A DNA stretch of 64,000 nucleotides from Ulva prolifera (taxonomy: Eukaryota > Chlorophyta > Ulvophyceae > Ulvales > Ulvaceae): contig CM041198.1 of assembly GCA_023078555.1 (NCBI GenBank), positions 11,599,874-11,663,873 on the forward strand, read 5' to 3'. The notes below the pieces were generated by a model. The model had not been told where the DNA came from. It searched no databases and worked only from the letters and a program-made list of their open reading frames with translations. Positions within the stretch are counted from its first letter, which is position 1; each line of letters begins with the position of its first letter. Made by a program: the position numbers and the translations under genes. Of this stretch, positions 1,801-64,000 are shown piece by piece.

Positions 1801-4800
1801 CTACGCGCCGCACAGGTGAGAGTCCATATTCACATCGTGCTGCCACGAGCGCTGCAAAGTGACTGTTCCATCACACACCACACTCAGCTGATGCACAAGA
1901 CGTGCTGTGTTTCCAGTGCCAATCATATGCACCTCCAGATTGCACGCCACATCAATCGGGAGACAGCCCTGGCGCTTGATCCGTGTGGAACGCTGGATTC
2001 GGTGCTCTGCAGTCAGCCGGTCGCCCAGCGGTGCCAGTAAGAACGACTCAGTGCAAGAGGTGGCCAGAGCCAGGCTGTTATCGGCGCTGCCCAGCACAGC
2101 CTCGCCCCCACGGTCCTCCACAGTCACCTGCACGCCCTGCGGCCCGCACACCGCCGTGCGCTGTCCGCCATGCTGGCGAGCACGTCTCACAGCCATGCCT
2201 GGCGGGATATGAACTCCGTCGTGGCCGACAGTCGAGCCAAGTCGGAGCGCCGCTGTGGCAGGTGCCGCCGTGCATGGTATGAGGCGGACCCGCAGCATGC
2301 TGTCCACACAGCGCACGGGCAGCGGGGCTAGCGATTCAGGTGCGAGCTCAGGCCAGATCAGTGGGAAGTAGTCGCGAGACAGCGCCAGCCGCAGATGATA
2401 CCCGCGCGGCAGTGTGTAGCAGGCATCGTGCATTATAATGTCCAGCATGGGGCTGTCTGCTGCCGCCTTGGCGGCGTGCAAGCTCCCCCAAGACACGCGG
2501 TGTGAGACGCCATTGGGTGCGACGGCGTTCAGCCGCGCGACTACCACGCCGCTTCTTGTTGCCCCGTCCACCAACGCCAGCTGCATCACCGGGCGGCCGA
2601 GGAGCAGTAAGTCAGCCTCTGCGGGCGGGCCGTCCCATGTCGCACACAGGGCATCCTCAGGGGCCTGGTCTGTCGGCAAGTCATCGTTCGCTCCGAAAGT
2701 GAACCATCGGCCGCCGGCGAGCCCAACGCATGGGCGCCCCTCATGCACCTCCGGCAAGGTGCTGCGCACTGATGCCACGGAGCACACCGCGGCAGCAGCG
2801 GCTGTTGGATCCGCTCCAAGGACGCCGTCGGGCAGCAGGGGGAGGGTCACCTCCTTGATGCAGTCCAGGGCAGAGACAGAGGGGAATCGCAGCCACCGCC
2901 CACACCTCGCCGCGGCAGCGCTGGCCATCGGCCGAGCCGGGCTTGGCGCCTCGGAGAACAGCGTCACATCGTCCGCGGCCTCACCCCTTGCGACCCCGGC
3001 AACAAAGGCAACCACATCCTGCAGGAACCCCGTCTGTGGCCCCAGAGGCGACACATGCGGCATGTTGTGGCTCCACGGCCCCACCACTGCCTGCACAGAC
3101 GCGTTGACACACTCCCGCGCCATGCGCAGCACTGAATTGTGGTACCCGCCGCCATGTGTCCCGCCGACGAGCAGCATGGGGACCGTGATCCGGCTGACCA
3201 CATGCTTCACGGAGCCGACAGCCCAATATTCGTCGTCCAGGCTGTGCCGCATCCAGTCCGGCGCGCGCGGCTCCAGCGCCTGCACCCGCTGCGCCCACTG
3301 CTCCTTCCATGCGCTGCCGACTGCTGCAGGGTCCGGCGGCATTGCCAGAGTGTGCATCAGCCAGGAGGACCACGAGAGGTTCTCGCAGAGGAGTGCGCCA
3401 CCCTGATAGTGCATGTCATCATCATACCGACTGTCTGTCGCGCACACCGCGACAACCGCCACGAGCGGCGCGCACGGCCGCGGCTGCGCCGCGACCTGCA
3501 TCGCAATGAAGCCGCTCCATGACAGACCCAGCATGACAACTCGCCCGTCGCACCACGGCTGCGCGGCCGCCCATTCCACCACCGCCGCGGCGTCCGCCGT
3601 CTGCTGCCGTGAGCACTCGTCGTCAAGGATCCCCTGCGAATCACCGGCGCCGCGCGAGTCCACGCGCACACACGGCAGGCCATGTCCGGCCAGGTACGGG
3701 AAGGTCAGCGCGTCAATCTCAGCCGTCCCATCCGCCTTGCGGTAGGGGTTCACCTCAACGATGGCGATGCCAGGAGGCGCGCTCCCTGGCAGCCACAGCT
3801 TTGCCGACAGCTCCACACCATCCTCCATCGGGATCGCGACATGCGGCACCTCCAGCGTCGACTCGTACGGCAGGTGCGAGGGCGGAACCACCTGCACGCG
3901 CACCTGCTGCACCGCCTGTGCGCCACTCCTGGCCGCACCCTGCTGCACCTGCGCCTGGCCGCCAGCAGCTAGGGAGTCGATGAACTCCGCAAGTTGGTCG
4001 AGGCGCGGGTGGGCAGCAATGCTGGCCATGGACAGGTGAACTCCGAAGAGCTCCCGCACGGACGCCGTGAGCTGCATGGCCAGCAGCGAGTGCCCACCCG
4101 CCTCGAAGAAGTCATCGTCCGCGGATGTGTCGGCCAGGTGCAGCAGCTCGCCCCACATCACCGCCAGCTGCGTCTGCGTGTGGCCCACCGGTGCCACAAA
4201 CGTCCCCGGGTCGCGCATGTGGTTGAGATGCACCACGGCCTCCGTCGGCTGCGGTAGCGCTGCCCGGTCGAGCTTGCCGTTCTGCGTCAGCGGCAGCGCG
4301 GCCAGCGGCATGAAGACCGTGGGAACCATGTACTCTGGGACGCTCAGCCGCAGCATGGCCTTCCACTCGCGCACGTCGGACATCGTGACTGCAAACGAGT
4401 CGGTGTCGCTCACGGCAGACAGGCTGCTGGCGCGAGAGTGGTCCGAGATGGTGGTGGTGGTGGTCGACGCTGCTGTATCTTCAGCGCACAGGGCGGTGGA
4501 GGCGTCAATGGCCTTGCTGGTGAAGTGTGCCCATGGCTTGTGGCGGCAGCCAGAGGGGTACGCGCCGCTGGGGCGGCGGGCCGCAATCGCCACGGTCTCG
4601 TACGTGTGCTGCCAGCCCTGCTCGACAAAGAGGATGTCCATCGCGCATGCGTCCTGCACATCGTCCTGGTGAAGCAGCCATCTCAGCTAATTGCACATGG
4701 CATTGGCTTCCATCAACATGGAGTTCGGTGTGCGTGCATCGGGCCATCACAGTGGTTCGGAGTTCATGACCCTGGGGCATTTATCTGGGCTACTGTGCAC

Positions 4801-7800
4801 GGCGCTGTTGACAGGCGCCAACGGCTGCTCATGTGGCACGCAATGGGTTGCTACTTTCAGTGTTGATTGCATATTGCAGAAGCCGAGCGCACACTGTACC
4901 CACCACACGATCCAGTGCAATCCTGCCCGGGTTAGTGCAAGATAGCAAACACGAAGAAGTACACTGCGTGTCCGACAATCCAGGCCATGTCCACGGAGCG
5001 ACTGATGCGCACCTCGGGGCTCCACATCATCTCGACATGATACCCAAGGTCTGACCCGAGCTGGTACAGTTCCTCTGGCTCCAAAGGCATCTGGGCTGCT
5101 GCCAGAGCGGAGGCCATGCGGCGCAGCTCGCCACACGTCTCGGGCCGGCGTGCGGGGCTGCGCAGCAGTTGCACCAACTGCCCATCTGCGGCAGTGCGTG
5201 CGTCCGGCACCGCAGCCAAGGCCAGTAGCCGAGGAGCTTCGGGGCCAGTGAGAGCCGCCCGCAGCTGCTTCAGAGAGTGGCGTTTGGGGTCGTATGCAGT
5301 GAGGCCGTACGTGCTGAGCTGGCGCGGCTTCCTAGGGTCCTCACGCCAGAAGTACACATCGTAACGGAACATGGAGAACTCGGAGTGGTGGTGGCCCCGC
5401 TTCATGTCAAGCCGAACTTCCGCAATGTCTGGAATCTCATGGGACACGTGCAGGAACAGGTCAGGGTCCACAAGGAACTCCTTCTCAAATGTCATAGAGT
5501 GTGTGATCTGCATGCCAGTGCAATCGGCGTCAGTGCACAGGCATGGAACGCATACAGAGGACAAACATCGTGCCAGGGCAGTACTCCTGTTCAACCTGCA
5601 AGCCACCGCCTGGCGACATTGGCCTGCTAGCAAAGGCATCGCTGAGGTGACGGGGTTCTGCATAAGCACTGGTCGGCCGCAGTGCGGCACTCGCAGCAGG
5701 GCTTCCACGCATCCTGACGGGAGCACGGAGGCAGCAGGGCTTCCAGGCATCCTGACGGGAGCACGGAGGTAGCGCACCTTCTGCACGAGCTCCCGCACAG
5801 GCATGCTGTCGCCAGCCTGGAAGAGCTGAGTGGAGGCGTGGAAGTGTGGGAAGAGCGTGTTGGCGCGCACGTCCCCCAGGAAGAACGCGCCCCCGGCCAC
5901 CACGGTGGCCACCGAGGACCGCACCACCTCCAGGAGGTAGTCAGCGCTGGGGAAGTACATGGACACGCCGTTGCAGATGACAGTATCCAGCTCATGCTTG
6001 CTGTACTTCTCCGCCTCATGTGCTCCCGCAATGTCCAGCACCACCTGCACGTGCCTGTCCAGTCGCACCCTGATGTGCGGCATGCATGACGCCACTCAGA
6101 CTCTCCCTTGCAAGCAGCAACAGCGCGACAGTGCTGGGTGGCTCAGGTGTCCATGATGCGCGCCGGCTGTGGCCAGGTGCCAACGCGCATGCTAGCCCAC
6201 CACCGCAGGCGGCCGTGTGCCACACGGGGCTGGCACAGTGTGGGCACTCCGTGCGGGCACCGCGCTGAGGGCGAGTGAGGCGAGAGGCGCACGTGAGGCA
6301 GCTCGAAGCGGGGGTCACTCGCGAGGATGTGCCTGCAGTAGTTCACAGAGAACTGGGAGAGATCACAGGCGACGTACAGCTGCCGCGCCACCTTAGCGCA
6401 GCGCAGCATGATCATGCCCTGGCCGCACCCCATCTCCAGCGCCCGGCGCGGCTGCAGTGCTGCGATGCGCTCACACGTCGTCTCGACCCACTCCCGCACA
6501 ACGGGGATCTGGTGCGGCGATCGCGGCGTGTACGAGTTGTCGTACCCTGAGAAGTTGAGCGAGGGGTCAGAGTTAGCGGAGGTCTGTGCAGAGTAGGCCT
6601 CGTCATACACTGCCCCCCACGCTTGCACTTCCTGCACAGCAGCGCTGCCTTGCACATGACTGCGCCGCCCGTGACGCTCCTGAACGTTCTGCCCGCCATC
6701 AGCATGCGCAGCGAGGAAGCTCACTGTGGTGTCAAGAGGCTGGGAGGGGTAGGGCTGGGCGCAGAGCGTGCCTGTAGGTCGTTGGCCAGGAGATCTGGGG
6801 CTTGGGTGGAGGACTGGTCCAGGATGCTGTTGATGCGGGCCAGAGATGCTTTGCAGACGGGGCCGAGGCGATGCCCAGCCAGGGAGGACACCTCGGGCGT
6901 GCTGTACATGCGCCGGATCTCCTCCGGCTGGCGCAAGACCACATAAGCAACGAGGTGCTTGCTGTCCTGTGCCTCCGCCTCCGCCCTACATGGCACACCT
7001 AAGCATGGGGCACATATGATGCATATGCCGGATGGCTTGTCGCATACCTGACTTAGAAAGAGGTGCTGCTAGGGGCAGCACTGCTGGTATCAGCCTGGCG
7101 CCTGTGCTCATGCGGTTCATGTCTCCAGGGCCTCACCATTGGGATACTCACGCTGGCAAGGATGCATGCGGCGGGCGCACAGCGCGCATACATTCTTCGC
7201 AGAAACGCCATTGCAGGGCCAAAACCGCTGGAATGCACTTTGAGGGGGCACGTGTTGACCGTACGACTTGGATTCAATTCCCGGCACCACAGGCAAAGTC
7301 CCAATGGATGCGGGTATGCATGCATGCACCCATAGATACATCATGCACCCATACATACATGCGGCCGGGCCGGGCGGCTCGGGAGGACGGGGTGCTGCGG
7401 TGGTGCAGGGCAAGCAGAAACGCAACGCTTATCGTTTGTGCGACCCTGATGCACATAGTTTTGTGCCGTTGTCGCATGAGACGCACGGTCGTTGGGACAG
7501 CCTGCTATGGATCACTTGAATCGACTGGCGGAGGTTGCGTCTCGGTGTGGTGTGGTGGACCGTGGTGTGTTTGTGACGAATGCGTTGCGCCGGTTGAGTG
7601 TGGAGTTGCGCCCAGGGAATGCGACTGTGCTCCATGCGGGGCTACAATTTTTTGGCTGGAATCACCGGCACGGCTGTGGTACGCGCTCGTGCCCGGCCTA
7701 TTGCCATGAATGAGTGAGTGGGTTTGCGAGTGGATTCCGAGAACCTGCTTCATGCCCAGCCTCTGTCCTTTGTAATTGCTTACATATATACAGAGCATAC

Positions 7801-10800
7801 ATCCATGCATACAGGCCGAGTCGAGCTTCCAGGGTGCCGATATCGATCGATTGTGACGGCAGGAGGTGGGGCGCACTTGACATCGACACAGCAGTCTCCA
7901 ACAAACGGATGTCTCTTGAGGACAGTTGAGACTTCTTCAGCCTCGATGCGAAATCCCCGCAGCTTGATCTGATGGTCGATGCGGCCACCGCAGAACAGAC
8001 TGTCGCCCTGCTGATACGCCAGGTCCCCCGAGCAGTAGATACGCTCTCCGCTTTCCTCGAGAACATGGAATGCCTTCTCATTCAAATCTGCTCGATTAAG
8101 GTAACCTGGACGACAACGTCTCGTGCTAAGAAACGTTTGGCGCCTGCACAGAAGCGCATGGTGCAGGTGCCTCCCCTGCTGCAAACGACGGCATCAGCTG
8201 GAACTCAACTACGGCGCCCAGTTGCAGGCAAGGGCGGTGCAGACGAGCACGAGCCGCAGCGGCGTGGATGGCTATTTTCTGAAGGGACCACAGCCCAGAA
8301 GGCAGGTGCACACCAGGGGAGAGGCCGATGCCACCAATCCAGAGCGTGCCAGTCTCGCCCTCTGGCACCGGCCGAAGGCGGTCGTCCAGGATATGCACCT
8401 GCGCAGCAAGTGTCGACTCTTCAATGTGCAGCACAGATTCAGTTTTACTACATGCTCTGCATCAGAAGCTCCGCGAGAGGATCCATCGAGGTCAGTGTTC
8501 CATCGAGGTCGGTGTTTGTACAAGCCCGGGGTGAAGGGACTGCGCCGCGGCAGAGCAGCGGATGCAGTGCAGCACAAGGGCATCGGGGCTGGTCAAGTCA
8601 GCCTGAAATAAGCCCCATATGAATGACCTCTCACACGGCGTGACCTCGGCAGGTGACATGCCATGGGGCCAGCGTCAAGGCAGTGTCCCTCAGTTTATCA
8701 CCCCGAATGGCATCACGAGGCACCGAAGCACACGCCGCAGCCGGCACGCCAGAATGGTGCGAGACACACCGTGGTGTTGTTGATCGGCCGGCCAATCTGC
8801 ACCTTCTCTCCAGCACGCGCGGTCCACGTGGTGCTCCAGACGGTCGTCTCCGTCGGGCCGTAGCAGTTCACAAGGCGGCCGACACGGGGCAGCAGCTCCT
8901 CCTGCAGCTCCTGCGGCATGGCCTCGCCCCCACACAGGGCTGCCATGTTGTGCGCCCCTGCCCAGCCGCTGCGCAGCAGCATGCGCCACGTCGTCGGCGT
9001 CGCTTGCATGATGGCCGGCTGGAAGTGCGAGATGAGGGACGTGAGCTCCTCGGGGTCGGCGGCCTGGTCGCGCGTTGCGAGGAGCAGCCTCGCGCCGCAC
9101 AGCAGCGGCAGGAAGAGCTCGAGGCCGGCGATGTCAAAGCACACCGTCGTCAGCGCCAGCAGGCTGCTCTCGGCCGTCACGGACAGCTGCACACGCGGCC
9201 GTGGGTGACTGGTGCAGGTTCGGACAGATGGTCATGGGGCGGCCGGCTGACTGTGCTGCAGCCCGTGACAGCATGCACTTTCGATGCTGATGTCGACCAG
9301 GATCAGGCCTAAGTTGTGGCATTCACATCCAAAGGCGCCATCACGGGATGCGGCTGCCATGGACATGTGCTGTTACACTGCGAGCAAGGTGGCACTGGCA
9401 ACTGCTATTGCACACCTGTTGTTGAAACGACTCCAGCAGGTTTGCCAGCGCACGGTGCTGTATCGGGACGCCCTTCGGCTTCCCGGTCGAGCCAGAGGTG
9501 AAGATGCAGTATGCGAGGTCGTCGCCACCGCATGCGGCCGCGCCGGCCGGGCCTGCAGCGGCCAAGCCGTGCATATCACCTTGAACTGCCTCACTATCGA
9601 GCTCTAGCAGGCGTGGCCGGCAGCCCTCGGGGCGATGGTGGGCGAGCGCCGCGGCGAGGTGCGCACTGACGGCTCCGAGAGTGACGGCGCTAGTGGCCCG
9701 GGCGTCGAGCAGCATGTGCGCGCAGCGGTCCGGGGGGTACAGCGGGTCGAGCGGCACGTATGCTGCGCCCACTTTCATGATGGCCAGCAGGGTTGCCACC
9801 AGGTCCGCGCTCCTGCGGACGCACCACAATTGTGCACACACTCATGTATGTGTGCGTAAGCTGTTGCAGCAGATTTCGCGATGAGACCCCGCTGGACACA
9901 CATTTGGCCGCCTCCTGGCTTTCTGCCATACTTCGGGGCATGCCGTGAACACTTCATGTCAGAGGCGCGACGGCGCCAGGGCCCGGTCGAGAGTTTGCAG
10001 CCCAGCCGGGGCAGGACCGGCACGTGGAGGTAGCCGGCCTCCCGAACTGCTGTGGGGTGCACAGGCGGTGTGCGGAAAGTCAAATCAGTAGTATGAGACG
10101 AGGATTGCACCGTGTGATCCCCAGAGCGCCGATGCGTCGCCGCCGGCGGCCGCCGATGACGGAGGGTACGTAGCATGCATGCGCATAAGTAGCAAGGTCC
10201 TGGATGGACAGATCTGCATGCTATTGTGCTTGGCACCACATGCCACAACAGATGTTGGTCAACATCAACTTGCCCCATTGCCATGGCCAAGGTAAATGGC
10301 CATGGCCACGCATGGTGAGCTAGCTGCAGCCGCAGCGCACCGATTTGTAGCTATATAGCTATATATGTACTTTTCAAATACACAGCTGTATGAATATATA
10401 CTTTTATACTTTAGTGATCGTGTGTGCGTTGCTGTTGTTTCGGATGAGATTCTTTCCTGGTGTTTGTCTTCTTCTGTTTACTCTCGTGTAAACAATACAT
10501 ACATATATATACTTTTATATGTATGATCTATTGACTTGCTATATATTATGTTGTGCCATTGTCGCATGAGACACATGGCAGGCAGAGGTGGCGTCTCGGC
10601 GTGGTGTTGTGGACCATGGTGTTTGATTGTGGCGTTGTATATATGCACATGCACAGGGAATGCTTATGTGCTCCGTGCGGGGCTTCAATCTTTGGCAGGT
10701 ACTACCGGCAGGGCTGTTGATTCGGACGAGATTCTTTTGTGGTGGTCGTCTTCTCCCGTCCACTCTTCTGTAACAAGGTTGGAGGATGGGATTCGGTTTC

Positions 10801-13050
10801 AGTGTTTGTTTTCTCCCATTCACACTTTTGTCATGTATCTGTATGTTGGAGGATGGGTGCCGAGAACCCGGTAGCCGGTAGCGTGCCCCGGCCTACGGTA
10901 CATATGTACACGTATAAATACTATGGCTACATGTACAGCAACTTTCGGCTGCTATGTATCAGCTCTGATCAGGCTTATCAGCTCTAATCAGGCTGACTAA
11001 ACCGGCACGGTCTTGCGTGCCGCATGCACATGTGTGCATGAGTTACAAGGACAAAGGCAGCAAGGCGGGCAGCACCACGAAAGAAGCACAGACGAAGCAA
11101 ACACCCAGCCACCCACACACGCGACACCCACGTGGTACCACGCCCAAAAAACCCACCACCGGCGCAGCAAACGACACAGATCCACAGACCGCCAAGCACA
11201 CACCTACAAACCCATACACGCACGCACAGACCCCACGGCCCACACACAACAACCGCCAACACCACAACGGCCGCCGCCGTACGACAGGGCCACGCCCAAC
11301 ACACTGCTGCCCGAGGCCGCCCATCATGGCCGCCCGATTGCCGGGGGCCGCCCTAGCCCCAAACCCCACCCCCACGCCCCGAGCCACAGCACACCTCGCC
11401 AGCCCGGCACACCGCCACGCAGCCTCGCCGGCCCACGCCGCACCGTACCCAGGACAATGCATCGCCCAAGCCGTCTCCGCAATCCCTGCACATGCCAACG
11501 AAGGCATCCCGCACTCCCATCGGACCCGGCCTAGCTGGAGTCAGAGGCCATCGGTTGGTGGCGTCAATTGCTTAAGCGGACGGGGCTCCCGAGGAGCACC
11601 CCGCCGCTCAGGCCGGATGGCCTGTCAGGCCATGTTTAGTGGTGAGCTTTAGTGATGAGCGGTCACATTGGTCACATTGGCGGTCAACTGGCGGTCAACG
11701 GCGATGTGACCGGTCACAATGCCCGCCGTGTTTAGTGGCGATTAATGTAACAATTGTTAGTTATTTAAATATGAATTGCTCCTTGACTGCAGACACCGCT
11801 TTGAAACACCTTCATAACACTCTTACACTTCATCTTGAATGCCTTCGGTGCTACATGATGTCCTGTGGGGTCTCGCGATGGAGCGGACGATGTGACCTGG
11901 GTCGCGACCGCGAATGTGGCCTGGCCATGCGATCCCGGAATGTGGACCCCCGCCCCCCGGTCACATGCCCGGTCGTTCACATTGACAGGTCACATCACGG
12001 ATCGACAAATCACTCCCGAACAACATCGAACCAAGACAAACGAACAATGCAGCAACACTTAAAATATGTTTCTGAGTAACTTTCATGCCTCGGTCGTGCT
12101 TTTTACGATTTTTTTGTTTGCCGGTCACGCTCCACAAACTAAACACGGCCTGAGCGGCGAGACGTCATGTGTCCATGAGTCTCAAACTTGGGTGCCCGTG
12201 TGGACACTGGCATGTGGACACGGACGTTTCTTCCAGTCTCAGTCCGTCTCGCTCTAGAGGACTGAATATTAGGGGATTCGCGAGCTGGTTCGGTGTTGGT
12301 TGGTGTCGGTTGACTCACGTAGGCGCCTGATCAAGGCCTAAACATGTTATGCCGCTCCGTGATGTTTATGTAATACAGCATCAACCAGTGAACTTTCTAC
12401 CTCAGTACACGGGCGTTGATCTGCATGCATGCCCCTCGGGTTGTGTTTGTTGAGACTCGCTTCGCTCTTTTGCAAGATATACACCTATACTTAAGACTGC
12501 GGCTGTTTCCAATTCACTGATGCATGTGACTGTAGGTATATACATATTATATCTATAGATGAAACACTCTATGTAATATGCCAACCTTCGTCATCTCTAT
12601 CTACGCACACACCAGCTTCCGAGAAGGTGCAGGGATGTTTCCGGATTGGGCACGCTACCCGTACCAGTTCTGGATAACTAAGGCCCGGTGGGCAATTGCC
12701 TCCGGAATAGCGCGGTAATACATCATATGACATATAGATTTTGCAAAATCTTCGTGCTGGAAAGGCGACTTTACGCTAGTGTGCAGCTGCTTCTGCTGGT
12801 GTTCAATTGAGCCCGCGGCCGTTGACTCTTCTGTAGCATGGCTATATATATACTTGTGGCTTCGCGCGCACCTTGGGAGCATCACACCCACAAACTGGCC
12901 TCGTTCAATGCCGTTGCGCATCAGCATGTGGGCGAGCACGTCCACCCTGCCAGCCAGCTCGGCGTAGGTCAAGCTGCCCTCGCCGCAGTGCACCGCAGTG
13001 CTCGAGCCCGCCGTCACCGCGTGGCGCTCGACAGCGTCCACGACGTGCAT
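1801..13050 (-). CDS. NRPS-like enzyme: adenylation (with inserted N-methyltransferase) - carrier - CocE/S15 hydrolase
   Basis: Ten exons join in frame: 13050-12872, 9812-9416, 9186-8770, 8398-8314, 8105-7877, 6961-6772, 6631-6293, 6044-5778, 5507-5013 and 4653-1801. They total 5451 nt, or 1816 residues plus stop. Residues 1-435 hold adenylation motifs A1 (LTYAEL), A2 (KVGAAYVPLDP), A3 (FTSGSTGKPKG), A5 (NCYGPTETT), A7 (YCSGDL) and A8 (GRIDHQIKLRGFRIEAEEV). Residues 500-866 are an N-methyltransferase inserted between A8 and A9, with SAM-binding motif LEMGCGQG and conserved blocks WGAVYDEAY and FPSADYLLEV. A9 (EYMVP, near 973) and A10 (NGKLDR, Lys near 993) follow, then a carrier domain with phosphopantetheine Ser near 1055 (GGHSLL). 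Residues from about 1135 form a CocE/NonD (peptidase S15-like) alpha/beta hydrolase with GLSWSG and GPWSH and a PepX-C-like tail. There is no condensation, reductase or ordinary thioesterase domain. By family rules it should load one amino acid as AMP ester and thioester and N-methylate it; the hydrolase role is inferred. The ATG at 13050 fits the usual adenylation-domain start, but an upstream exon is possible. Confidence 0.9.
6632..6771 (-). other. Putative GC-AG intron 6 of the NRPS-like gene
   Basis: The only donor that keeps frame and conservation is CTACAG|GCACGC, a GC donor, paired with acceptor GTGCAG|GAAGTG. The join gives LLANDLQ-EVQAWGAVYDEAY, the expected entry into the inserted N-methyltransferase. 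GC-AG introns are a known minor class in eukaryotes. The call rests on frame and protein conservation only. Confidence 0.6.
7461..7680 (+). repeat. Dispersed repeat, copy A (in NRPS intron 5)
   Basis: About 220 bp matches, with divergence, 10551-10720 in intron 1 of the same gene. Shared blocks include ttgtgcc(g/a)ttgtcgcatgag, a GTCTCGG-GTGGTG-GTGGACC block and a block beginning gggaatgc and ending in a ccggca-ggctgt stretch. No coding capacity was recognised. It is probably a decayed transposable-element fragment. Confidence 0.6.
10438..10834 (+). repeat. Tail-motif repeats, three direct copies
   Basis: Three related copies at about 10438-10490, 10721-10772 and 10787-10834 share a core of cgga(t/c)gagattctttt followed by a TGTTTGTCTTCT-like stretch and a terminal TGTAA-like end. 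The third copy is the most diverged. A fourth copy lies in inverted orientation near 13105-13185. Confidence 0.55.
10551..10720 (+). repeat. Dispersed repeat, copy B (in NRPS intron 1)
   Basis: This is the diverged second copy of the element at 7461-7680, in the same orientation. It runs straight into a tail motif beginning ttcggacgagattctttt, which has further copies nearby. Confidence 0.6.
11602..12159. mobile_element. MITE-like element with terminal inverted repeats
   Basis: The left arm CGCCGCTCAGGCCG (11602-11615) is the exact reverse complement of the right arm CGGCCTGAGCGGCG (12146-12159). The match resumes as TGTTTAGT (11633-11640) against ACTAAACA (12138-12145), after a 17-nt insertion on the left. 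The interior is full of short GGTCACA/TGTGACC and GGTCAAC motifs in both orientations and has no recognisable coding region. No clear target-site duplication is visible. The element sits inside intron 1 of the NRPS-like gene. Confidence 0.5.
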
Positions 13051-13102
13051 CTCGGGCCTCCGATCCTGTACATGTACATGTGATGCTGCAATCGCGTTAA
13101 TT

Positions 13103-13190
13103 ATTACAAAAGATTAAACGGGAGAAGACAAACACCACAAAAGAATCTCATCCGAAACAACAGCAACACACAGTCACACGACAGTCGCGT
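13103..13190 (-). repeat. Inverted copy of the tail-motif repeat
   Basis: Read on the minus strand, this stretch contains gttgctgttgtttcggatga followed by gattctttt and tgtttgtcttct. It closely matches the plus strand at about 10415-10490. It lies just upstream of the NRPS-like start codon, so copies bracket exon 1. Confidence 0.6.
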
Positions 13191-15004: not shown

Positions 15005-15212
<208 letters not shown>

Positions 15213-17741: not shown

Positions 17742-20700
17742 ATGAATACTTTACTTGCGGGGCTCGCGGGCGTGCTGAGTATATTAACGTGCGTAACGAT
17801 CTTGTCTTTGCATGACGCGACATTGTACCAGCTGGTGCTTTGGCCAGCCACCAAGACAGCCGTAAAGCTTGCACACCCTGCCGTGCGAGGAAGCGGCCAC
17901 TCCATCTATGTGTGCACTGCATCACACCGGCTGTTGGGTGTTGACGTGTGCCTGTTGTAGCCAGCAGGGGTGGCCTGGGTGGAGCCGGCAAGCATGCCCT
18001 GCTTTTGACGATGGCTTTGATATGAAAGCACATGCTTCATGATATATGCTGTCCCGCGTGGGTGGTACACTATCTCGCATTTGCCATGACGGGTTTGCGC
18101 ACAATGCAGCGGATGCCGGGCAGGCTCGGACATCAGTGGTCAGGTGGGGGACACCGCACCGGCGCAGCAGCCTGATCCTGAACAATGGCGGACTCACAAT
18201 CATGATCAAGGCCACTGTGCCATGTACGGTATCTGTGGGGACAGGCTAGATGGTGGTGCCTTGAATTGTCCATATAACATTCCAGCACAGAAAGCCGAGC
18301 CGGAGGCAGAACGCATCTTGTCCTCGATATGTCCACAGTTGTGGGCTGAAAGCGGTGTGTGACTTCCAGAGAGTGGGCAAATATACCTTTACAAGGACTC
18401 TGCTGCTCATCTGTCATAAGACGCGCACTACTGAGCATTCCGGCAGTTCTGACAGTTACAGACAGGGTGACACATACTGCATGACTCAGACCACACTGCA
18501 GCTGATGCCGCAGCACTTCGCATCATCAAAGTACAGATATGCAAAGGAACGTCACTACAGGAGCGGTGCATGTAGGCGGCCATGTCTGCTGCAGTGGCAA
18601 GCAGGCAGGTGTCATGCAGCACGAGATGATGAAGGCGGCACCGTTTCTGATCGGGTGTCCGGCGTGCATGAGCAACTTCCGAAACCTCTTCTGCTCCCTG
18701 TTCTGCTCTCCAGACCAGGCCAGTTTCACAAACGTCACCGCTGCTGCCATGGGCAGCCCCAAGAGCAATCGCTCGGAAGAGGTGGTAGTTGTGAAGGAGG
18801 TGGCCTTCTACCTCAGCGAGAGCTTCAAGAACGCCACATACAACAGCTGCAAGGACGTCAGCTTTGGGGCAGCAAACAACAGGGCGATGACCTACATCGG
18901 CAATGGTGCTGAGAATGCACAGGTGAGCTGCTGCCCAGCTGCTATTCGAACTTTGATGTCGCATGTATCTGCCGCTGATGTCTTCAATTCTGCAGGAGTT
19001 TCTGGACTTCATTGGCACTGTCAAGGACAGGACTGCGTATCACATCGGCTCGCCGATCCAGTTGGACTTCATGCCAGGCGATGTGGACGTCCCGGATGCG
19101 ATGACCCCATATGAGCAGGCAGTACCGACGTGCGGGGGCTCACTGTTGCGCTGCTCCTGCGGTGACTGCCCGGATGCTCCGGCATGTGCTCCGTCCGACA
19201 CAGGAGGCGACGCCACGGGTGTGGGCAGATGCACTATCATTCACATCTTCGGCTTCCCTGTATGGTGCACAGATGGCATCATCGCGTGTGCGGGGCTGAT
19301 CGTCCTTGGCATTCTGGCCTGGCTGTCATCTCAAGGGCGGCTTGAACCGAAGACTGGCAGCCAGCCGGTAGGTGTGTGTCAGCATGGAGGCCCTGACCAA
19401 TCTGGTATGTCTGCCGTGCTGCTGCTCGATGCCCCCGCACAAGGGCTGCTCTCCACAAGGGTGTGCTCTTGCAGCGTGGCTGTCGGAGGCATCCTGGCTC
19501 GAAGCAAGGACTCCAGAACGTGAGGTCAGCATGGGCGCCTCCGTGGACGATGAGCGGACTGCAGCAGAGACGCTGCTGCCGCCGTTTGCAATCCCCCCGT
19601 TCCATGCGCATTCGGACGATGTGTGGGTCTCTCTTGGTGGCAGGCCAGTCCCGGTAGTCCAAGCGCAGCTGCAGCGCTTCTTTGCGTTCCTCGGCCGCAG
19701 AGTGTCGGGCTCCCCCGGGTGGACGATCCTGCTCTGCATTGCCTGCGTGGCATTCTGCATGCTGGGGCTCATTGGGATGCATGTCGTGACCGACCCTCTC
19801 CACCTGTGGGTGCCGCGGGCCTCCCGGGCGGCCAAGGACAAAGCCGCCTTTGACTCGGAGTTTGGGCCATTCTACAGGATTGAACAGATCATTCTGAGCA
19901 CCAAGCCCGACGCGGATGGCTTGCGGCCTCCAATTTTATCAGAGGAAGCCATCGAGCTGGTGTGCTTTTGTTTTCACCTCCTGTTCGGGCCCGACTCGAA
20001 CGCCAGTGTGCCAGCGCGCTTGCAGCAGCACTTCGTTCACACAACGCACACGGGCCGAGGCTCACTGCATCGGCTGCCCTCACGTACTCGATCTGGGCCT
20101 GCCTCAATCGTTCATGACGATGGAGAGCATCGGTCACGGGTGCAGTAGAGCTTGCGGGAGATTGCAGGTTTTCAATATTCATGATGTGATCGATGACGTA
20201 AGAGCGGTGTCGTATGATGGCGATGTGGTGTACCTGGAGGATGTCTGCTTCAAACCGTTTGGGGATGCGTGTGCGACACAGAGCATTGCCCAGTACTGGG
20301 CCATGAGCAGGGAGGACTTCCGGTCGTCTGGCTTCGCATCCCTGAAGTATTGCCTGAGTCACTGGTCGACTGCATGCCGGTGCGCTCATGCTGTTGCAGT
20401 CAGCACAACAGCCTCCTTGCACTGCGCCAGCGCCCTGCAATGCTAGAGCTGCACCGATTTAGCTCGTCGTTGTAATGTGGATGTTTCGACTGTGAGTTGT
20501 ATGATTGTCCATGGTATGCACTCCTCTTATCACTGGGAGCGCTTGCCTTCCTCTGATGGAGCCTCAAAGAGAGACCTGATCTTGGGAACCCTCTAGTTCA
20601 TCCACTGCCATGGAAGAGGTGCATTGTGCTTGCCCTGGCGATGTGGTGTGGTGGTGGTAGCACTGTCAACACACCCGCTGAGTGTGCATGACTGTTTCAG

Positions 20701-23700
20701 GAGCGCATTCAAGGCCCCCCTTGATCCCAAGCTGGTGCTGGGAGGTTACCCCGAGAATGCGACGGACCTCATGACCCATGCTACGGCATTGCTGATCACC
20801 CTGCCCGTCAGCAACGGCCACACTACCCTGCACAAGACCGAGAAGTGGGAGCGGCACTTTATTCATGCGGTGCGGCTTGGCCCCCTGTTGCGAAGCTGCA
20901 CTTGCCCGTGCGTCACAGCTCGCCGGTGCCCGCCGGGCTGCCCACACAGCGAAATTCTCTGGCGCCTTCACTGCAGCATGTGCTGGATCTGGCACCTCGA
21001 TGGCTTTTTTCCCGGCTCCATAGCTGAATGTTCCTGCTCACGTGCCTTACCGGTTTCCCCGCAGAGGTATTCAGTAGACTTGGAGGCACGCACGTGGTCT
21101 CCTACCACCCTCCAGGGTGAGAGGCTACAACCTACCCGCACACTGATGGAAGACGTGCAGGTGGAGGCCAAGATTGTGCCCCTGGTGCAGCAGCAGGGCC
21201 TCGATGTCAGCTGGAGCGCCGAGATATCAGTGCAGAGCGAGCTCGCCCGCGAGTCGTTGCTGGACGCCCCCACAGTCGCGCTCTCGTATGTCGCCATGCT
21301 CACCTACATTGCCCTCGCCCTTGGCCGCGGCCCCTGGGACCTGTCAGCCCCCTGGAACAAGCGAGTTGTGGAGTCGCGGGTGATGCTCGGCCTTGCCGGC
21401 GTCGCCGTGGTCGTGTGCTCCGTGCTGGGCGGCATGGGCATCTGCAGCACGTTCGGCGTGTCCGCTAGCCTGATCGTCATGGAGGTGGTGCCCTTCCTCG
21501 CCCTGGCAATCGGTGTCGACAACATGTTTCTGCTGGCCACGGAGGAGTCACTACAGCCGCGCAGCGTGCCGGTGCGGGAGTGTGTCGCGCGTGCGCTCGT
21601 CGCCGTCGGGCCGTCGATTACGCTTTCTACGCTGTGCGAGGTCCTCGCCTTCCTCACCGCCGCGCTGACAAGCGTGCCGGCGGTGCGGAACTTTGCGCTC
21701 GTTGCCGCCGCGGCCATCACGCTCGATTTCTGCCTACAGATCACTGCGTTTGTCGCGATCCTTGTTCTTGACTGTGAGCGCATGCGGGACGGCTACGCGG
21801 ACATGCTGCCCTGCCTGTGCTTGCTGCCGGAGGAAAGCACCACCGTGTCGGAGGCGTTCGAGGTTGAGCAGCTCTCTGAGGGCGAGGAGCCTGAGTCAGA
21901 CATCCTGGCGGGCACGGGATCCGTTGTGGCTGCAGGAGATGCCCCCAGCAGTGACCCGTCAGGTGCACATGCGCTGCTGTCCCATGCCTTGGGGGCTCTG
22001 CATGAGCATGTGCTGAGCACAGCCCGCGGGAAGCTGGTGATTCTGTGTGTTGCGGTCGTAGCCAGCGCCGCCGCAGCTATTTCCATCTCGCACGTGAGCA
22101 TCGGGCTAGATCAGCAAGTGGCGCTACCGCAGGATTCTTACCTGCAGCATTACTTCAGGTTTGCTCTGAGCCCATGTCGGCTGCTGTGCATTGGCAGGTG
22201 GAAGTACTGCGGACAGCCAAGTGAAGCTTGAGGCCTGGTCGTGCTCACAGTCTCTGGTATGCAGTGATGTGCTTCACTTCGCTCGAGTCGGGCCGCCAGT
22301 GTACTTTGTCGTCGAGAACATGAATGTATCAGCGAGCGCTCCAGACATGGCCGCCGTCTGTGGCTCTGCAGGATGCAATGATGACTCGCTAGTCAACGTC
22401 GTGTCGCAGGCCGCAAGGCACCCTGCTGACACGTTCATTGCCACTCCCGCTGCATCCTGGATCGATGACTTTGTCGCATGGGTGCAGCCCGAGCTCCCAA
22501 ACTGCTGCAGGAAACACGATCAAGGTGCAGCATCGTTGCCTTGTGCTGTTGCGCATCAGCCAGGTGGTCTTGTGAGCTCTGGCAAGTGGACTCTCATTGC
22601 TTGCTCAACCAGTGCACGGCTTGCAGGATCGTTTTGCCCAGCCCCCGACATCGAGCCGTGCAAGTCAGACAGCGGTGTCTGCAGCGACTGCCATACATGC
22701 CTACAACCTTCAGACCTGGAGAATGGTAGGCCATCGTTGACAGATGTTCAGCGTTTGCTTCCATGGTTCTTGGAGGCAACGCCCTCGCAGTCGTGTGCAA
22801 AGGGGGGCCGCGGCGTGTACAATGCAGCCTTCAGCATTGACCCAGACTCAGAGCAGCCCGCGGGTCTGGCAGAGGGCTTGGTCACCTCGTCATTCCGTGC
22901 TCTGTCACAGCCACTATCCAAGCAGTCCGACTTCATCGCTGCGTTGACGTCAAGCCGACAGCTGGCTGATCAGGTTCAACAATCTCTCGACAAAGCAGCA
23001 GGTGCGGGCATTTGAAGTGTGCCCGGCGGTTGCCGCTTTCTCTGGCACACAGCTTTGTAAATGCCTTGGGTATTCATGCAGGTCGCAGAGGTGGGGGCCC
23101 CTTTGTCTATGTGTACTCAGTGTTTCACCCATTCTTTGAGCAGTTCTTAACAATAGTGTGGGATTCGGTGACCCTTCTGAGCCTGTCAAGTATCTTAGTC
23201 TTGCTGGTCACGTTGTTGTTCACTGGCTCACTACATCTGTCTGGGATTTTGGCGATAACTATTGGTTCATTGATGCTGGATGTGATGGGAGCGATGCACA
23301 TTTCCGGGATACAACTGAATGCCATCAGCCTGGTCAATATTGCCATGTGTGCTGGTATTGGCTTGGAGTTCCTCAGCCATACTGCACATGCTTTTCTCAC
23401 AGCGACCGGCACCAGGTATGCTGTAACTTCTCCTGCTCATGTTGCAAATTGGTAAAGGGTGTGTGGTCACATTGGATGTCGTGCAGGGAGCAGAGGGTCA
23501 GCATTGCTTTGCGAGGCAAAGGCGCGGCAGTGTGCTCTGGCATCATCCTGACAAAGCTGGTCGGCGTGACCATGCTTGCATTCTCACAGACCAAGATCTT
23601 TGAGATCTACTACTTTCGTATGTACATGGCATTGGTAGTCATTGGCACGTTCCACGGCTTGCTGCTTCTGCCAGTACTTCTTGCTCTGGTGGGCCCAGAG

Positions 23701-41368: not shown

Positions 41369-44852
<3,484 letters not shown>

Positions 44853-57796: not shown

Positions 57797-60700
57797 TCAC
57801 TTCTCCTCAATCACTTGATCGGCTTCCACCGGCTTGGAAGTGCTTGCCTTTGCCGCTGGCGCAGCATCCCCTTCACCCATAAGAGCCATCCCCATCATGT
57901 CATACACCTTCGATGCATAATCCTTTGGCGAGTCCACATCAAACCCAGATGTTAGCAATGCGGTGTCATACATCAAGTTGACAATCTCTCGAGCTGCTGG
58001 ACTGGTGCTGTCAGCCTTCACCAGATCATTCAACGCTTGAATCACCTGCAAGACACCCGTGTTCTGTGCAAAGACGGCACCCAATTTTGCATACTCATAC
58101 GTACGCTCATGTCAGAGCACTTGACAAGGAAGGCTGGCGACTGGTCGGCCCGTCGAAACGCCAACAGCATTCACGAAGGGTGCCTCGGGCGCACCTGGTT
58201 GTCGGGGTTGATCTCCATGATCTTCTCACCTTTCATGTAGTCCATCGCCCGATTGTCACCCATGGGCTGGCTCTTCATGATGCGTTGCATGTTTGCGCTC
58301 CAACCCTGCTGGGAGGTGACCAAGATGCATGGTGAGTCTGTGAGGCGTGCAGACACGGACGCCTTGCTGACCTTGCCCCCGAGCTCCTGCTGAATGAAGT
58401 CCACCACTGGCTACAGCACACACAGCCCCAGTCACTCGACAGCTACGGAACCCAGCAAGCAGAGGCTCTCCACCTGTGCTCTGCAGTGGTGCACCAGAGC
58501 ACACACCTACCTACCGCACACATGTCACACATGCAAGCACCAGCTACCAGCAGTTTCAACATGATGCTGTAGGTGTCGAAGGATCTACCTCTCCACGAAC
58601 ACAGGCAGGTGAACGCCACATATGGCCAAGATGCGTGAAGGCGGCAACTGACAAAACACGAGCCCACCGCTTGTTCTTGCACGACATGGCCATGAGGCAC
58701 ACCTTGAGGAGGTTCTCGCCCTGCTCAACCTTCTTCTTGTCCTCCTCGTCCAGCTCCAGGCCCTCCTTGGTGACGTCCACGAGCTTGTGGCCCTTATACT
58801 CTGACAGCTGTGCGCCCGTCCACTCATCGATCGCTTCCGAGTAGAACAGCACCTCCAGGTCCTTGCCCTGGAGCGCCTCGACAAACGGCGAATTGGCGGC
58901 AAGCGCGTCGCTCTCCGCCGACACATAGTAGATGCCCTTCTGGCCCTCTTTCATGCGCGACACGTAGTCATCGAGCCCCGTGAGCACGTCCCCAGACTTG
59001 TTTGACTTGTACTGCACACTCACCACATATGTCAGCCTGAAGTCACGACACTGCCAGCCACGCCTTTATGAGGTATGCAACAGAACGCGTGCAGTGCGCG
59101 ATATGCATAGGCTAATGCATGCGATAGCCCGGCAAAAGAGGTTGCAGAACACAGTTCCCAGCTAGGGTGCAATGCTGTTTGATGCGCATGAAGGGCAGAG
59201 GCAAAAGAGGCAGATTTCAGGCGTGGGCGGCCGTGGAGGCAGGGGCACACGCGCAGGAGGGAAGCGAGCTTGTCCTTGTTCTCGGGGTCGTCCACGATGC
59301 CGAGCTTGATGTTGCGGCCAAACTGGCTCCAGAACTTCTCGTACTCGTCCTCGCCCTTGCCCATGAGGTCGGTCATCATGTCCAGACACCGCTTGACGAG
59401 CTGCTTGCGGATGATCCGCACAACTCGGGACTCCTGCACACAATCACAACCCCTTGGCACCGCATCAATGGTACAACCGGCCGCACGTTTGTACCTCAGC
59501 ACAGGGCACCTCTAACCCACTTCATGTATACTTTCCGCACTAAAAATGTCGGCGGCGCCACGTGCGCCTCGCGCGGCCCGGAGCAGAAGGGCGGATGCGC
59601 ACCTGGAGGATCTCACGGGAGACGTTGAGGGGCAGGTCCGCAGAGTCAACGACACCTTTCACGAAGCCGAGGTACTTGGGCAGCAGCTGCTCGTCAAACT
59701 GGTCCGAGATGAACACACGCTTGACGAACAGGCGGATGCTGCTCTTCTTCTGGTCTTGCATCATCATGTCGAAGGGCGCCATGCCGGGGATGTACAGCAG
59801 CCCGGAGAACTCGTACGTGCCCTCAACGTTGAAGTGTGACCGCGCCATCGGGTCCATGAACTCCTTGAAGGTCTGCTTGAAGAAGGAGCTGTACTCTTCG
59901 TCGGTCACGTCCTTGGGCGTGCGCGTCCAGATCGGCTTGTTCTCATTCTGCAGCTTGAACTCCTCCACCTCGTCGTACTCTGTCTTCATCACCGGCTCCA
60001 CCTTCTCCGTGTCCTCCTGTACACCCCACTCGCCGCTCACACACCCACCAGTTTCTTGCTGCTGACAGCACGTGTCGAAGCGACCTCACCGATACAGATG
60101 GAAACAGGTCCTTTAAGATCTGCTTTGTGCCTGCCTGGCTGAAGCCCGGCGCTCAAATGATGTGAGCGTGGATGGAGAACGGAGAGCCACCGCCATGCAG
60201 AGTGGCGCACAAGGCAGCCGAAGAGGCAGTGCAGCAGTGCTGCGGTGCATACCTTGCCCTCGTCCTTGGCCTTCTTGTCGGCAAACTCCTGCGCCTTCTT
60301 TGTCGCCTCCTCGTCCTCCACCTGCTTCGGCACGCGCTGCTTGCTCCACAGCTGGATGGGGAATGATATGAACTCACTGTACTGCTTGATCAGGCGCGAC
60401 AGCTCCATCTCCTCCAGCAGGTCGGCGCAGTCCTCCTTCACGTGCAGTGTGATCCTGCGCACGGCTGCCCCTCAGCAACCCCCGCCCGCGCCTCCGCTGC
60501 CTGGCACACGCTGAGCACAGCATCTCAAGTCCACTGCCTGCCTGAGGCACGGCGGAACATGGCAGCGGAGAGAATTCTGTTTCACAGGTGCAGTCACCAT
60601 GAGCATGCATGCACTTGCGTACGACGACGCATCTGCAGCAGGAGTGAGGGGCACACCGGGTGCCGCGGGCAAGGTCGCCGTCCGGTTCCTCTCGCACCGA

Positions 60701-61704
60701 GTACTCGTGGCTGCCGGCGGTGGACTCCCACGCCCACTGCTTGTCGTCGTTGTGCTTCGTCTGCACGGTGACGCGGTCAGCGACGAGGAAGGAGGAGTAG
60801 AAGCCGACGCCAAACTGGCCGATGAGGTTGCTGTCCTTCGCCTCCTGCGCCTGCTTCATCGCCTCGGCAAACTTGGCCGTGCCGGAGCGTGCGATCGTGC
60901 CCAGCGACGATAGCAGGTCCTCCTTCGTCATGCCGATGCCCGTGTCCTCGATGACAATGGTGTTGCTCTCCTTGTCGGACTGCAGGCACGACAGGGGGTG
61001 TAGGCGACGTGGGTGTGCATGAGGAAGGCTCTGGAGCACCACAAATACGAGATCCAGCGTGACAAGACATGCCGTGGTTGTGTGGCATGGGTGAAGGGCG
61101 TGGTCATGAGGGGTCATTGTGTCATTTTGACTGATTGTGTGGTGGGAGCCATGAACGTCAGGATGGCCTGGACAAGCACAGAAGCCCTCAGCATCGACAG
61201 CCGAGCAGCTATCGTCGTCAAGCCACAGGACCCTGTGCATGTATGCCAACGTGCCTGTGAAGGTGCGGGCTGTGGAGGATCATGCTGGCAACATACCTTG
61301 ATGCGGACTTCCAGATCAGTGCCAGTCTTGAGGACATCTGGGTCGGTGAGACTAGTGATGCGAACTTTGTCTAACGCATCGGACGCGTTAGAAATTAGCT
61401 CACGAAGGAAAACCTCCTTGTTGGAGTAGAGTGAGTTGACAATCATGTCCATCAGGCGGTCAGTCTCCGCCTGGTAGGCAAACTTCTCCTCGGTAGCAGC
61501 TGCACTAGCTAGTGTCGCACGTCGGTCCATGGAGCTTTGCATGACGGGGGTCACGAAGCGGTGGGAGTGGCTTGATCTTGTTTGAGTGACATGCACTGCG
61601 CTGGCTGCCCTGACCTTCACGACAATGACGCGTGTCAGCGGTGTCCAGAAGCTGTTCAACAGGTAAGTAGAAAAAGGCCGATGAGTGTATAAGTTTATCT
61701 TCAT
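57797..61704 (-). CDS. HSP90C: Organellar Hsp90 (plastid Hsp90C-like)
   Basis: ATP-dependent chaperone. Eight exons are supported; the first ends at 61297. The N-terminal region (from ATG at 61704) is basic and Ser/Thr/Ala-rich with no signal-peptide core, as in an organelle transit peptide. The ATP-binding domain has [20 protein letters not shown], then [20 protein letters not shown] and [20 protein letters not shown]. The middle domain has [30 protein letters not shown] and [20 protein letters not shown]. The C-terminal domain has [40 protein letters not shown] and [20 protein letters not shown]. The tail ends [10 protein letters not shown] with neither the cytosolic MEEVD nor an ER KDEL signal, supporting an organellar form. 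The ATG at 61704 is chosen as the longest plausible leader; an internal ATG near 61541 would shorten it. Confidence 0.93.
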
Positions 61705-62500: not shown

Positions 62501-64000
62501 ATGGGTCGTGTCAGGACGCAGTGCGGGATGTCGGTCAGAGAGGTTGCACAGCTTGGCTGCGCCAGGCGCAGCAACGCGATAGCTCCCTACGCTCTCACAC
62601 GCCACCTTTTCCGACAGCCACCAGGACGTGTCGCGGCAAAACAACCTGTGCACCAGGCAACATCAAGGGATGCGGTCGCCGTTGTAGGAAGTGCTGCAGT
62701 CAGAGCAGGTGTGCAGAGAAACATGGTAACAAGCACCCTTGTCTTGAATGGCTGTCTTGGCTGCTGGTCCTGTGCGATCTAGCTCTCACGATCAGCGATT
62801 CCACATGCATGTTTATGTCAACGTAATCAGGAGGGTACAGCAGCCTTTGACAGGTCTGGTGAGTATGTACATGATTCCCTTTAATCATCACCAACACGTT
62901 GCAACTGCAGCCCATTGCATTCGCACAAGGCACCCTCTTGCCGTGCAGACGTAGACAGTCAGGGAAGTGTCAAATCGAGTCGAGGGCGTACGGTCAGAGG
63001 GCTCTGTGGCTGCCAGGCAGACATTGTGGTGCTTGGACTTGGTGCCAGCGGCACTGCAGTGGCAAAGGTTGCAGACCAGCTGGGACACACTGTGTTAGGT
63101 GTGGAAATTCGTTCATGATGCTGGAGCATGCAATATCTTCGGACAGCATAGCGTCAAGCCCTATGTGGTGCAGCAATTGACGAATGGAAAACACACACAG
63201 CCAGAGACGTGTTAATTCCGGGTCTTCCAGCCCGGTCTCCCTTAAAATGCTGGTGGGGTGAACCCCCGGTGGAAGCACTGGATCACTGCCGCCTGCTAAT
63301 TCTCTCGCCGGGGGTCACACTCGAGCACAAATTAGTTCAGGCAGCTCTTGCCCGACAGACTGCCATCACATCAGAGCTTGCATATGCAATGGGCTTGCTG
63401 CCTTGTACTCTACCTACAATTGCAATCACGGGGACGAATGGCAAATCTACGACCGTTGCTTTCGTAAGTGCCATGCTGTGTCAACTTGGACTCAATGTAT
63501 GGACCGGTGGTAATTTTGGAGAGCCTGTGTCATGCTTGGCAGCTGCACTTGCATCGGGCAAGCCACCACCTGATATTGCAGTAATTGAGGTGTCTTCTTA
63601 TCAATTAGAGGCTCCTGGTTTGATTCAACCGTATGCAGCAGCAATTCTCAATCTGTCAGTGGATCACCTGGACCGACATGGGGATATGCAAGAATACGCA
63701 CGCACCAAAATGCGACTGGTGTCGAGAATGCCACCCGGAGCTCCAAAGCTGGTGTCTCCTGAAGTCATTGCATACGCAAGGGGCATCGCGTCTGCAGTGG
63801 CACGTGAAGTCTTGGATGAGATGCCTGGACTTGAGTTTGATCACACAGCATCCCAAGTGAAAATGCAGCATGCCGGCTGGTCACAGCCTAAGCTGCTGGA
63901 TTTATCTGAGTTGCGTGCTGTGGGTCATCACAACCGGAGGAACGCAGGCATCGCCGTATTTCTGGCCAGTGCCGTTGTCGGTGAATCCAGGTGGGATGAG
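62501..64000 (+). CDS. MURD: MurD-like UDP-N-acetylmuramoylalanine-D-glutamate ligase (5' part; cut by window end)
   Basis: MurD adds D-Glu to UDP-MurNAc-L-Ala in peptidoglycan synthesis. Exon 1 (62501-62708) encodes a basic, Ala/Arg-rich leader suited to plastid import. Splicing AGCAG|GTGTGC to GGCAG|ACATT continues into the N-terminal Rossmann motif IVVLGLGASGTAVAK (exon 2, 63021-63098). A long frame open to the window end then carries LLILSPGVTLEH, ATP loop IAITGTNGKSTTVAF, and WTGGNFGEP. It continues with IEVSSYQLEAPGLIQPYAAA, LNLSVDHLDRHGDMQEYART and VGHHNRRNAGIA. The order and content match MurD rather than other Mur ligases or folylpolyglutamate synthase (SSYQLE plus DHLDRHG). The acceptor joining exon 2 to the long exon (between 63170 and 63270) is not fixed. 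The C-terminal domain lies beyond the window. Confidence 0.87.

What the first reader, a model, noticed from the sequence alone, without database searches (positions are those of the whole stretch)
1801..13050. Single-module NRPS-like enzyme in a eukaryotic nuclear genome: A(nMT)-PCP-hydrolase
Seen: ten exons close in frame to 1816 codons with every core adenylation motif, an inserted N-methyltransferase, a carrier Ser and a fused alpha/beta hydrolase, and no condensation domain. Known: free-standing NRPS-like enzymes exist, but usually end in reductase or thioesterase domains (alpha-aminoadipate reductase, A-T-R enzymes). Inference: this enzyme activates and N-methylates one amino acid and releases it through the hydrolase. 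I do not know of a described enzyme with this architecture in an alga.
Basis: partly seen in the sequence, partly recalled or inferred. Interest (0 to 1): 0.88.

Follow-up and report, generated by a model that had tools for sequence, protein, structure and literature searches.

The report
One-module glycine N-methylating enzyme in alga
A green alga carries what looks like one solitary enzyme built to pick up glycine, add a methyl group to its nitrogen, and pass the product to a fused cocaine-esterase-like domain whose usual catalytic acid is missing; this combination was not seen in the bacteria searched.

Summary
The gene is real. Ten exons on the minus strand (13050..1801) close in frame to 1824 codons (1844 with an alternative intron 6). 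They encode an adenylation (A) domain, an N-methyltransferase (NMT) inserted between A8 and A9, a carrier protein (PCP) and a full-length CocE/NonD (peptidase S15) hydrolase. The last exon alone encodes A10-PCP-hydrolase, so that fusion does not rest on splicing.

New here: (1) the specificity code is DILQLGCVWK, glycine type; the loaded unit should become N-methylglycine (sarcosine). (2) The genome shows no condensation domain, one strong PCP and one strong S15 match, so the enzyme looks solitary. (3) The hydrolase keeps Ser, His and the oxyanion Tyr, but GGWxDGY, holding the triad Asp in 47 of 47 bacterial relatives, reads GGTHGGGY. Simple hydrolytic release thus has a fact against it. (4) No bacterial counterpart of the fusion was found, but cyanobacterial chromosomes and other algae could not be searched.

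Best reading: a glycine-activating, N-methylating one-module enzyme with a modified CocE-type release or transfer domain; product sarcosine, a more methylated glycine, or a sarcosyl conjugate. New variant of a known kind.

The parts
12872..13050 (-). Exon 1: start ATG, A-domain core A1 (LTYAEL)
   Evidence: junction aligns with three bacterial modules; motif names recalled
9416..9812 (-). Exon 2: A2, A3 (FTSGSTGKPKG)
   Evidence: TIGR01733 E 7.9e-32 for the surrounding frame
8770..9186 (-). Exon 3: A4 (FDIA), A5 (NCYGPTE); nine of ten specificity positions
8314..8398 (-). Exon 4: most of A6
7877..8105 (-). Exon 5: end of A6, A7 and A8
   Evidence: TIGR01733 E 8.5e-20 for the surrounding frame
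6772..6985 (-). Exon 6: start of the insert and linker (ends at 6725 in the alternative model)
6293..6631 (-). Exon 7: N-methyltransferase with SAM motif LEMGCGQG (starts at 6644 in the alternative model)
5778..6044 (-). Exon 8: N-methyltransferase
5013..5507 (-). Exon 9: N-methyltransferase, C-terminal part
1801..4653 (-). Exon 10, one frame: A9, A10 (NGKLDR), PCP, linker, CocE/NonD S15 hydrolase, stop
3979..4167 (-). Peptidyl carrier protein, GGHSL with the carrier Ser
   Evidence: PF00550 E 1.7e-13; genome-wide
3067..3822 (-). S15 (CocE/NonD) catalytic domain; Ser at 3520-3522, His at 3067-3069, oxyanion Tyr at 3742-3744
   Evidence: PF02129 E 7.2e-47, TIGR00976 130.4 bits; residues
3136..3168 (-). 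VGGTHGGGYHN loop where 47 of 47 bacterial relatives have W and the catalytic Asp (GGWxDGY)
2335..2664 (-). PepX_C jelly-roll part of the hydrolase
   Evidence: PF08530 E 2.8e-5

Best explanation
A solitary one-module NRPS-like enzyme. The A domain activates glycine with ATP and loads it on the PCP; the inserted NMT methylates the PCP-bound amine with SAM to sarcosyl-S-PCP (possibly more than once, since no condensation domain takes the unit away); the fused CocE-type domain takes the acyl unit onto its Ser and discharges it, either to water (sarcosine or N,N-dimethylglycine) or, because the triad Asp is lost, preferentially to an amine or alcohol acceptor. Shown from sequence: domain order, intact frame, core motifs, glycine-type code, solitary status at the sensitivity of the searches, loss of the Asp. 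Inferred: activity of every domain, number of methyl groups, and the release step.
For: Gene model and domains. Code DILQLGCVWK; four glycine domains carrying a monooxygenase insert share DILQLGMIWK (PMC12283262, passages), and DILQLGVI was read as glycine (PMC5466765, passage). EntF as control gave DVWHFSLVD in the first nine positions, the serine type. Of eight bacterial modules aligned, the three closest in the A core (42-44% identity) have glycine-type codes; the other five are at 33-38% with other codes. Genome: 0 condensation matches, this PCP plus one small frame, one strong S15 match, so no second module was found to take the unit; two PPTase-family matches that could arm the PCP. AlphaFold2 model of the hydrolase, pLDDT 84.1, pTM 0.90, best matches cocaine esterase (Foldseek E 9.4e-30, TM 0.61 on the model, 0.74 on the target, rmsd 5.5), then, among others, alpha-amino acid ester hydrolases. 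61 of 71 columns invariant in 47 bacterial relatives are kept.
Against: The triad Asp and its Trp neighbour are gone, so the release step may not work. The hydrolase sits on a very long branch (4.54 against a median end branch of 0.42) and changes 10 of 71 bacterial-invariant columns where no bacterial row left out in turn changes more than 4 of about 75. The NMT is no closer to the three glycine-type modules (32-34%) than to the other five (28-35%). Free sarcosine is normally made by simpler methyltransferases (general knowledge), so an ATP-costly route to it would be odd. No transcript, product or relative from another alga was available. Specificity codes are predictions, and Cys at position 322 was in none of the glycine codes I read.
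Confidence: 0.5

Rival explanations
1. The CocE domain is catalytically dead or structural; sarcosyl-S-PCP is offloaded by a separate enzyme or acceptor in trans, so the protein is a sarcosyl donor rather than a complete synthetase.
For: Loss of Asp and Trp that are invariant in 47 of 47 relatives, long branch, low model confidence in that loop (mean pLDDT 65 for residues 251-260).
Against: Nucleophile, His and oxyanion Tyr are kept and 61 of 71 invariant columns are kept; the whole domain of about 690 residues is still in frame.
Confidence: 0.25
2. The CocE domain is active but not on the PCP-bound unit: it cleaves a separate ester or amide, like its free-standing bacterial relatives, and the fusion only couples two steps of one pathway.
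For: Bacterial relatives examined are free-standing; 24 of 64 loci with at least 12 kb held have an ABC importer ATPase nearby, against 0 of 8 NRPS plasmid loci, which suggests imported small substrates.
Against: Direct fusion behind a PCP is the position of a releasing domain.
Confidence: 0.1
3. The gene is in early decay and makes no functional enzyme.
For: Triad residue lost; intron 6 needs a GC donor or an alternative GT pair; a repeat-bearing 3-kb intron.
Against: No stop or frameshift in 1824 codons; core A motifs, PCP Ser and SAM motif present; coding GC 0.66 against intron GC 0.56.
Confidence: 0.1
4. Two neighbouring genes were merged, or the sequence is a bacterial contaminant.
For: The parts have separate bacterial relatives.
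Against: A10, PCP and S15 lie in one uninterrupted frame; nine introns; contig C3 extends past 11.8 Mb and carries light-harvesting matches.
Confidence: 0.03

Closest known systems
Glycine-type A-NMT-PCP modules of cyanobacterial and Mycetohabitans NRPSs (Planktothrix agardhii L096, Nostoc L098, M. rhizoxinica L097)
   Same: Same order A1-A8, NMT, A9-A10, PCP; glycine-type code; 42-44% identity in the A core, 32-34% in the NMT
   Different: They lie in NRPS or NRPS/PKS plasmid loci; in the alga one module, no condensation domain found in the genome, and a fused CocE domain
CocE/NonD family hydrolases (cocaine esterase; S15, TIGR00976)
   Same: Full-length fold with PepX_C; Ser, His, oxyanion Tyr
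   Different: Triad Asp and Trp replaced in GGTHGGG; fused to an NRPS module, whereas none of 85 relative loci shows an A, NMT or PCP part
Alpha-amino acid ester hydrolases (Acetobacter turbidans, PDB 2b4k, 1nx9)
   Same: Same fold; act on aminoacyl esters and can transfer the aminoacyl group to amines (recalled)
   Different: Weaker structural match than cocaine esterase; their acidic cluster for the amino group (recalled) was not tested here
NRPS-like reductases (A-T-R; alpha-aminoadipate reductase, fungal glycine betaine reductase, recalled)
   Same: C-less, one A and one carrier
   Different: No reductase domain in the Pfam result of the last exon; an NMT is present

Membership tests
Canonical NRPS module (C-A-PCP) | A domain and PCP with core motifs | tested here: met
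Canonical NRPS module (C-A-PCP) | Condensation domain in or near the protein | tested here: not met
   PF00668: 0 matches in the genome; ten of twelve upstream minus-strand frames without NRPS domains
N-methylating A domain (NMT between A8 and A9) | NMT inserted between A8 and A9, aligned with known modules | tested here: met
Glycine-activating A domain | Specificity code of the DILQLGxxWK type | tested here: met
   DILQLGCVWK; passages
Glycine-activating A domain | ATP-PPi exchange with glycine | not testable with these tools
   needs protein
CocE/NonD hydrolase (S15) | Family score and fold | tested here: met
   TIGR00976 130.4 bits over cut-off 66.3; Foldseek
CocE/NonD hydrolase (S15) | Complete Ser-His-Asp triad | tested here: not met
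   Ser and His kept, Asp column reads Gly
Type I thioesterase-terminated NRPS | PF00975 thioesterase after the PCP | tested here: not met
   absent from the five Pfam families of the last exon at E 0.01
A-T-R NRPS-like reductase | C-terminal reductase domain | tested here: not met
   absent

The most novel reading that the evidence does not exclude
A eukaryotic lineage fused a bacterial-type glycine N-methylating module to a CocE hydrolase and then lost the triad acid, turning the hydrolase into an acyltransferase: a self-contained carrier-protein route from glycine to sarcosyl (or di/trimethylglycyl, betaine-type) conjugates that needs no condensation domain, a release chemistry I do not know to be described for assembly lines.
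Probability: 0.2. Interest if true: 0.8.

Novelty: new variant of a known kind. Interest (0 to 1): 0.6.

Why it matters
A survey of algal NRPSs found them by the condensation domain (PMC4661987: NRPSs in 7 of 32 species; abstract and passages seen), so C-less enzymes like this one would not be counted. The product class is predicted narrowly enough (N-methylated glycine) to be tested at once. The fused CocE domain with a lost catalytic acid raises a clear question about how an NRPS product can be released or transferred without a thioesterase, reductase or condensation domain.

Tried and rejected
Rejected: bacterial contamination and gene merging (introns, uninterrupted last exon, contig context). 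Unlikely: an upstream condensation exon. Other AMP-binding genes as a second NRPS: of 22 matches, some of which are this gene's own exons, I scanned seven frames from L002, L003, L004, L006 and L008: L003 and L004 are acetate-CoA-ligase-like, L002 and L006 (one gene) acyl-CoA-ligase or carboxylic-acid-reductase-like, L008 gave no family. Matches on C9, C6, C8:0.18 Mb and C1:2.095-2.099 Mb were not scanned; no strong PCP match lies near them.

Search for the fusion in bacteria, with limits. Genomes of the phyla reached from L034, L073, L051 and L061: 377, 396, 392 and 395, with matches in 17, 54, 8 and 1 (E limits 1e-25, then 1e-30); only about two candidates were scored per genome, so a fusion could be missed. 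Three matches are ordinary carrier matches without S15. Six S15 matches lay in frames over 900 residues; four were fetched and hold no A, NMT or PCP match; G154:C44 (938) and G707:C17 (925) were not fetched. Cyanobacterial chromosomes and all other eukaryotes: not searched (no handle, not held). Viral contigs: one scan, no relative.

Led nowhere: Rfam; genome-size search for the species (species not identified); paper searches for a CocE-NRPS, an algal sarcosine NRPS, NRPS-like betaine enzymes or CocE D259. The tree places the algal hydrolase on a branch too long to name a donor. Coordinates of the fold model were not available, so a replacement acid near the His could not be looked for.

Full report
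What is there. On the minus strand, ten exons between 13050 and 1801 join in frame with nine AG acceptors and GT donors in eight of nine introns. Intron 6 is either GC-AG (1824 codons) or GT-AG with other ends (1844 codons); both keep the frame, and only the first was aligned with relatives. Its nine junctions continue the alignment with modules of Planktothrix, Mycetohabitans and Nostoc, with gaps of a few residues beside junctions 5, 6 and 9. I chose the sites by eye from splice consensus and recalled NRPS motifs before those sequences were fetched, so the agreement is partly built in. The spliced A-NMT-PCP part matches Planktothrix in one piece over residues 17-1099 of 1106 at 33.7% identity.

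Domains. Pfam finds AMP-binding, PP-binding, weak class-I methyltransferase matches around their cut-offs, then Peptidase_S15 and PepX_C. The methyltransferase region aligns end to end with NRPS N-methyltransferases, including the SAM motif LEMGCGQG. NCBIfam scores the last part as CocE/NonD, 130.4 bits over a cut-off of 66.3. The last exon encodes A9, A10, PCP and the entire hydrolase without an intron, so the PCP-hydrolase fusion is direct.

Substrate. The ten specificity positions read DILQLGCVWK (numbering recalled). EntF from E. coli K-12, aligned the same way, gives DVWHFSLVD in the first nine, the serine type; its tenth column was misaligned because EntF has no insert. PMC12283262 (passages) reports 93 glycine domains, says 12 of their codes are 70% alike and names positions 299, 322 and 330 as setting them apart (I take these as the variable ones), and gives DILQLGMIWK for four glycine domains with a monooxygenase insert. 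PMC5466765 (passage) reads DILQLGVI as glycine. I aligned eight bacterial modules from seven plasmid loci, out of 1610 matching plasmid records. Three have glycine-type codes (DILQIGIVWK, DILQLGLIWK, DIVQLGVIWK) and are the closest of the eight in the A core, 42-44%; the other five are at 33-38%. In the NMT the three are no closer than the rest. With an NMT behind a glycine A domain, the expected unit is N-methylglycine.

Solitary. In the 88.9-Mb genome (44 contigs) PF00668 gives no match, PF02129 one strong and one weak match, PF00550 this PCP and one small frame. These searches look exon by exon and score only the best candidates, so they are lower bounds; a modular NRPS or PKS should still have shown carriers. 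Two PPTase-family matches exist. No partner module that could take the unit was found.

The hydrolase. Against 47 bacterial relatives the algal domain keeps the nucleophile Ser, the His and the oxyanion Tyr (48 of 48 rows each), but the loop GGWxDGY, with W and D in 47 of 47, reads GGTHGGGY. The alignment to solved cocaine esterase puts an algal Gly opposite the Asp of AGWYDG as well (number D259 recalled). 61 of 71 columns invariant in bacteria are kept; each bacterial row, left out in turn, changes at most 4 of about 75. The fold model is good (pLDDT 84.1, pTM 0.90) with a dip to 65 at this loop, and best matches cocaine esterase, then other S15-type enzymes including alpha-amino acid ester hydrolases. 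The branch to the alga is long. So the domain is not rubble, but its chemistry has probably changed or weakened.

Is the fusion known elsewhere? None found: plasmids; 85 relative loci; 1560 genomes drawn from four phyla with about two candidates scored each (377, 396, 392 and 395); four of six long frames checked. The gaps are serious: the collections hold no other eukaryotes, cyanobacterial chromosomes could not be reached, and the genome-contig scan hit its limit. In print: PMC4661987 (abstract and passages) reports NRPSs as rare in algae, 7 of 32 species, found by the condensation domain, so an enzyme like this would not have been counted. PMC11523091 (abstract and passages) reports NRPS/NRPS-like clusters in most of six Trebouxia strains, without architectures in the passages seen. 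My ten answered paper searches listed no description; they cover open-licence papers only.

Mechanism. Glycine activation (my estimate about 0.85), loading, N-methylation (about 0.8), then release or transfer by the CocE domain (about 0.5). Because no condensation domain removes the unit, double methylation is possible (inference). Loss of the triad acid could favour transfer to an amine or alcohol over hydrolysis (inference; alpha-amino acid ester hydrolases of the same fold transfer aminoacyl groups to amines, recalled). A dead domain is the main rival.

Origin. Both halves have bacterial relatives and the gene has nine introns; a transfer followed by fusion is plausible but not shown. The host is of the green lineage by its LHCII sequences (recognised by eye); the species was not identified.

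Noticed in passing
window 63152-64000 +: Mur ligase (PF08245 E 4.6e-23, weak MurD-like N-terminus) in the nuclear genome of a photosynthetic eukaryote: a peptidoglycan-pathway-type gene.
   Followed up: no
window about 18640-22230 +: NPC1-like gene (sterol-sensing domain and NPC1 middle domain in frame 20597-22228; start read by eye), divergently oriented next to the NRPS gene.
   Followed up: no
window 10400-10900 and 13101-13172: Interspersed repeat in the 3-kb first intron (46 matches listed, 1712 first-look candidates in the genome); copies at 10423-10491 and 10713-10776 are inverted relative to 13101-13172, just upstream of exon 1.
   Followed up: partly
window 60377-61279 - and 41686-42402 -: HATPase_c_3 domain and a class II tRNA synthetase domain.
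   Followed up: no
L016-L095: Free-standing bacterial relatives of the CocE domain have an ABC importer ATPase nearby in 24 of 64 loci with at least 12 kb held (permease in 15 of 64), 0 of 8 NRPS plasmid loci as control; function of this subfamily is unclear.
   Followed up: partly
G000 C1:2089736-2098837: Large-frame AMP-binding matches; the part scanned scores near carboxylic acid reductases and acyl-CoA ligases.
   Followed up: partly
window 15050-15210: Long CA/CG dinucleotide run.
   Followed up: no
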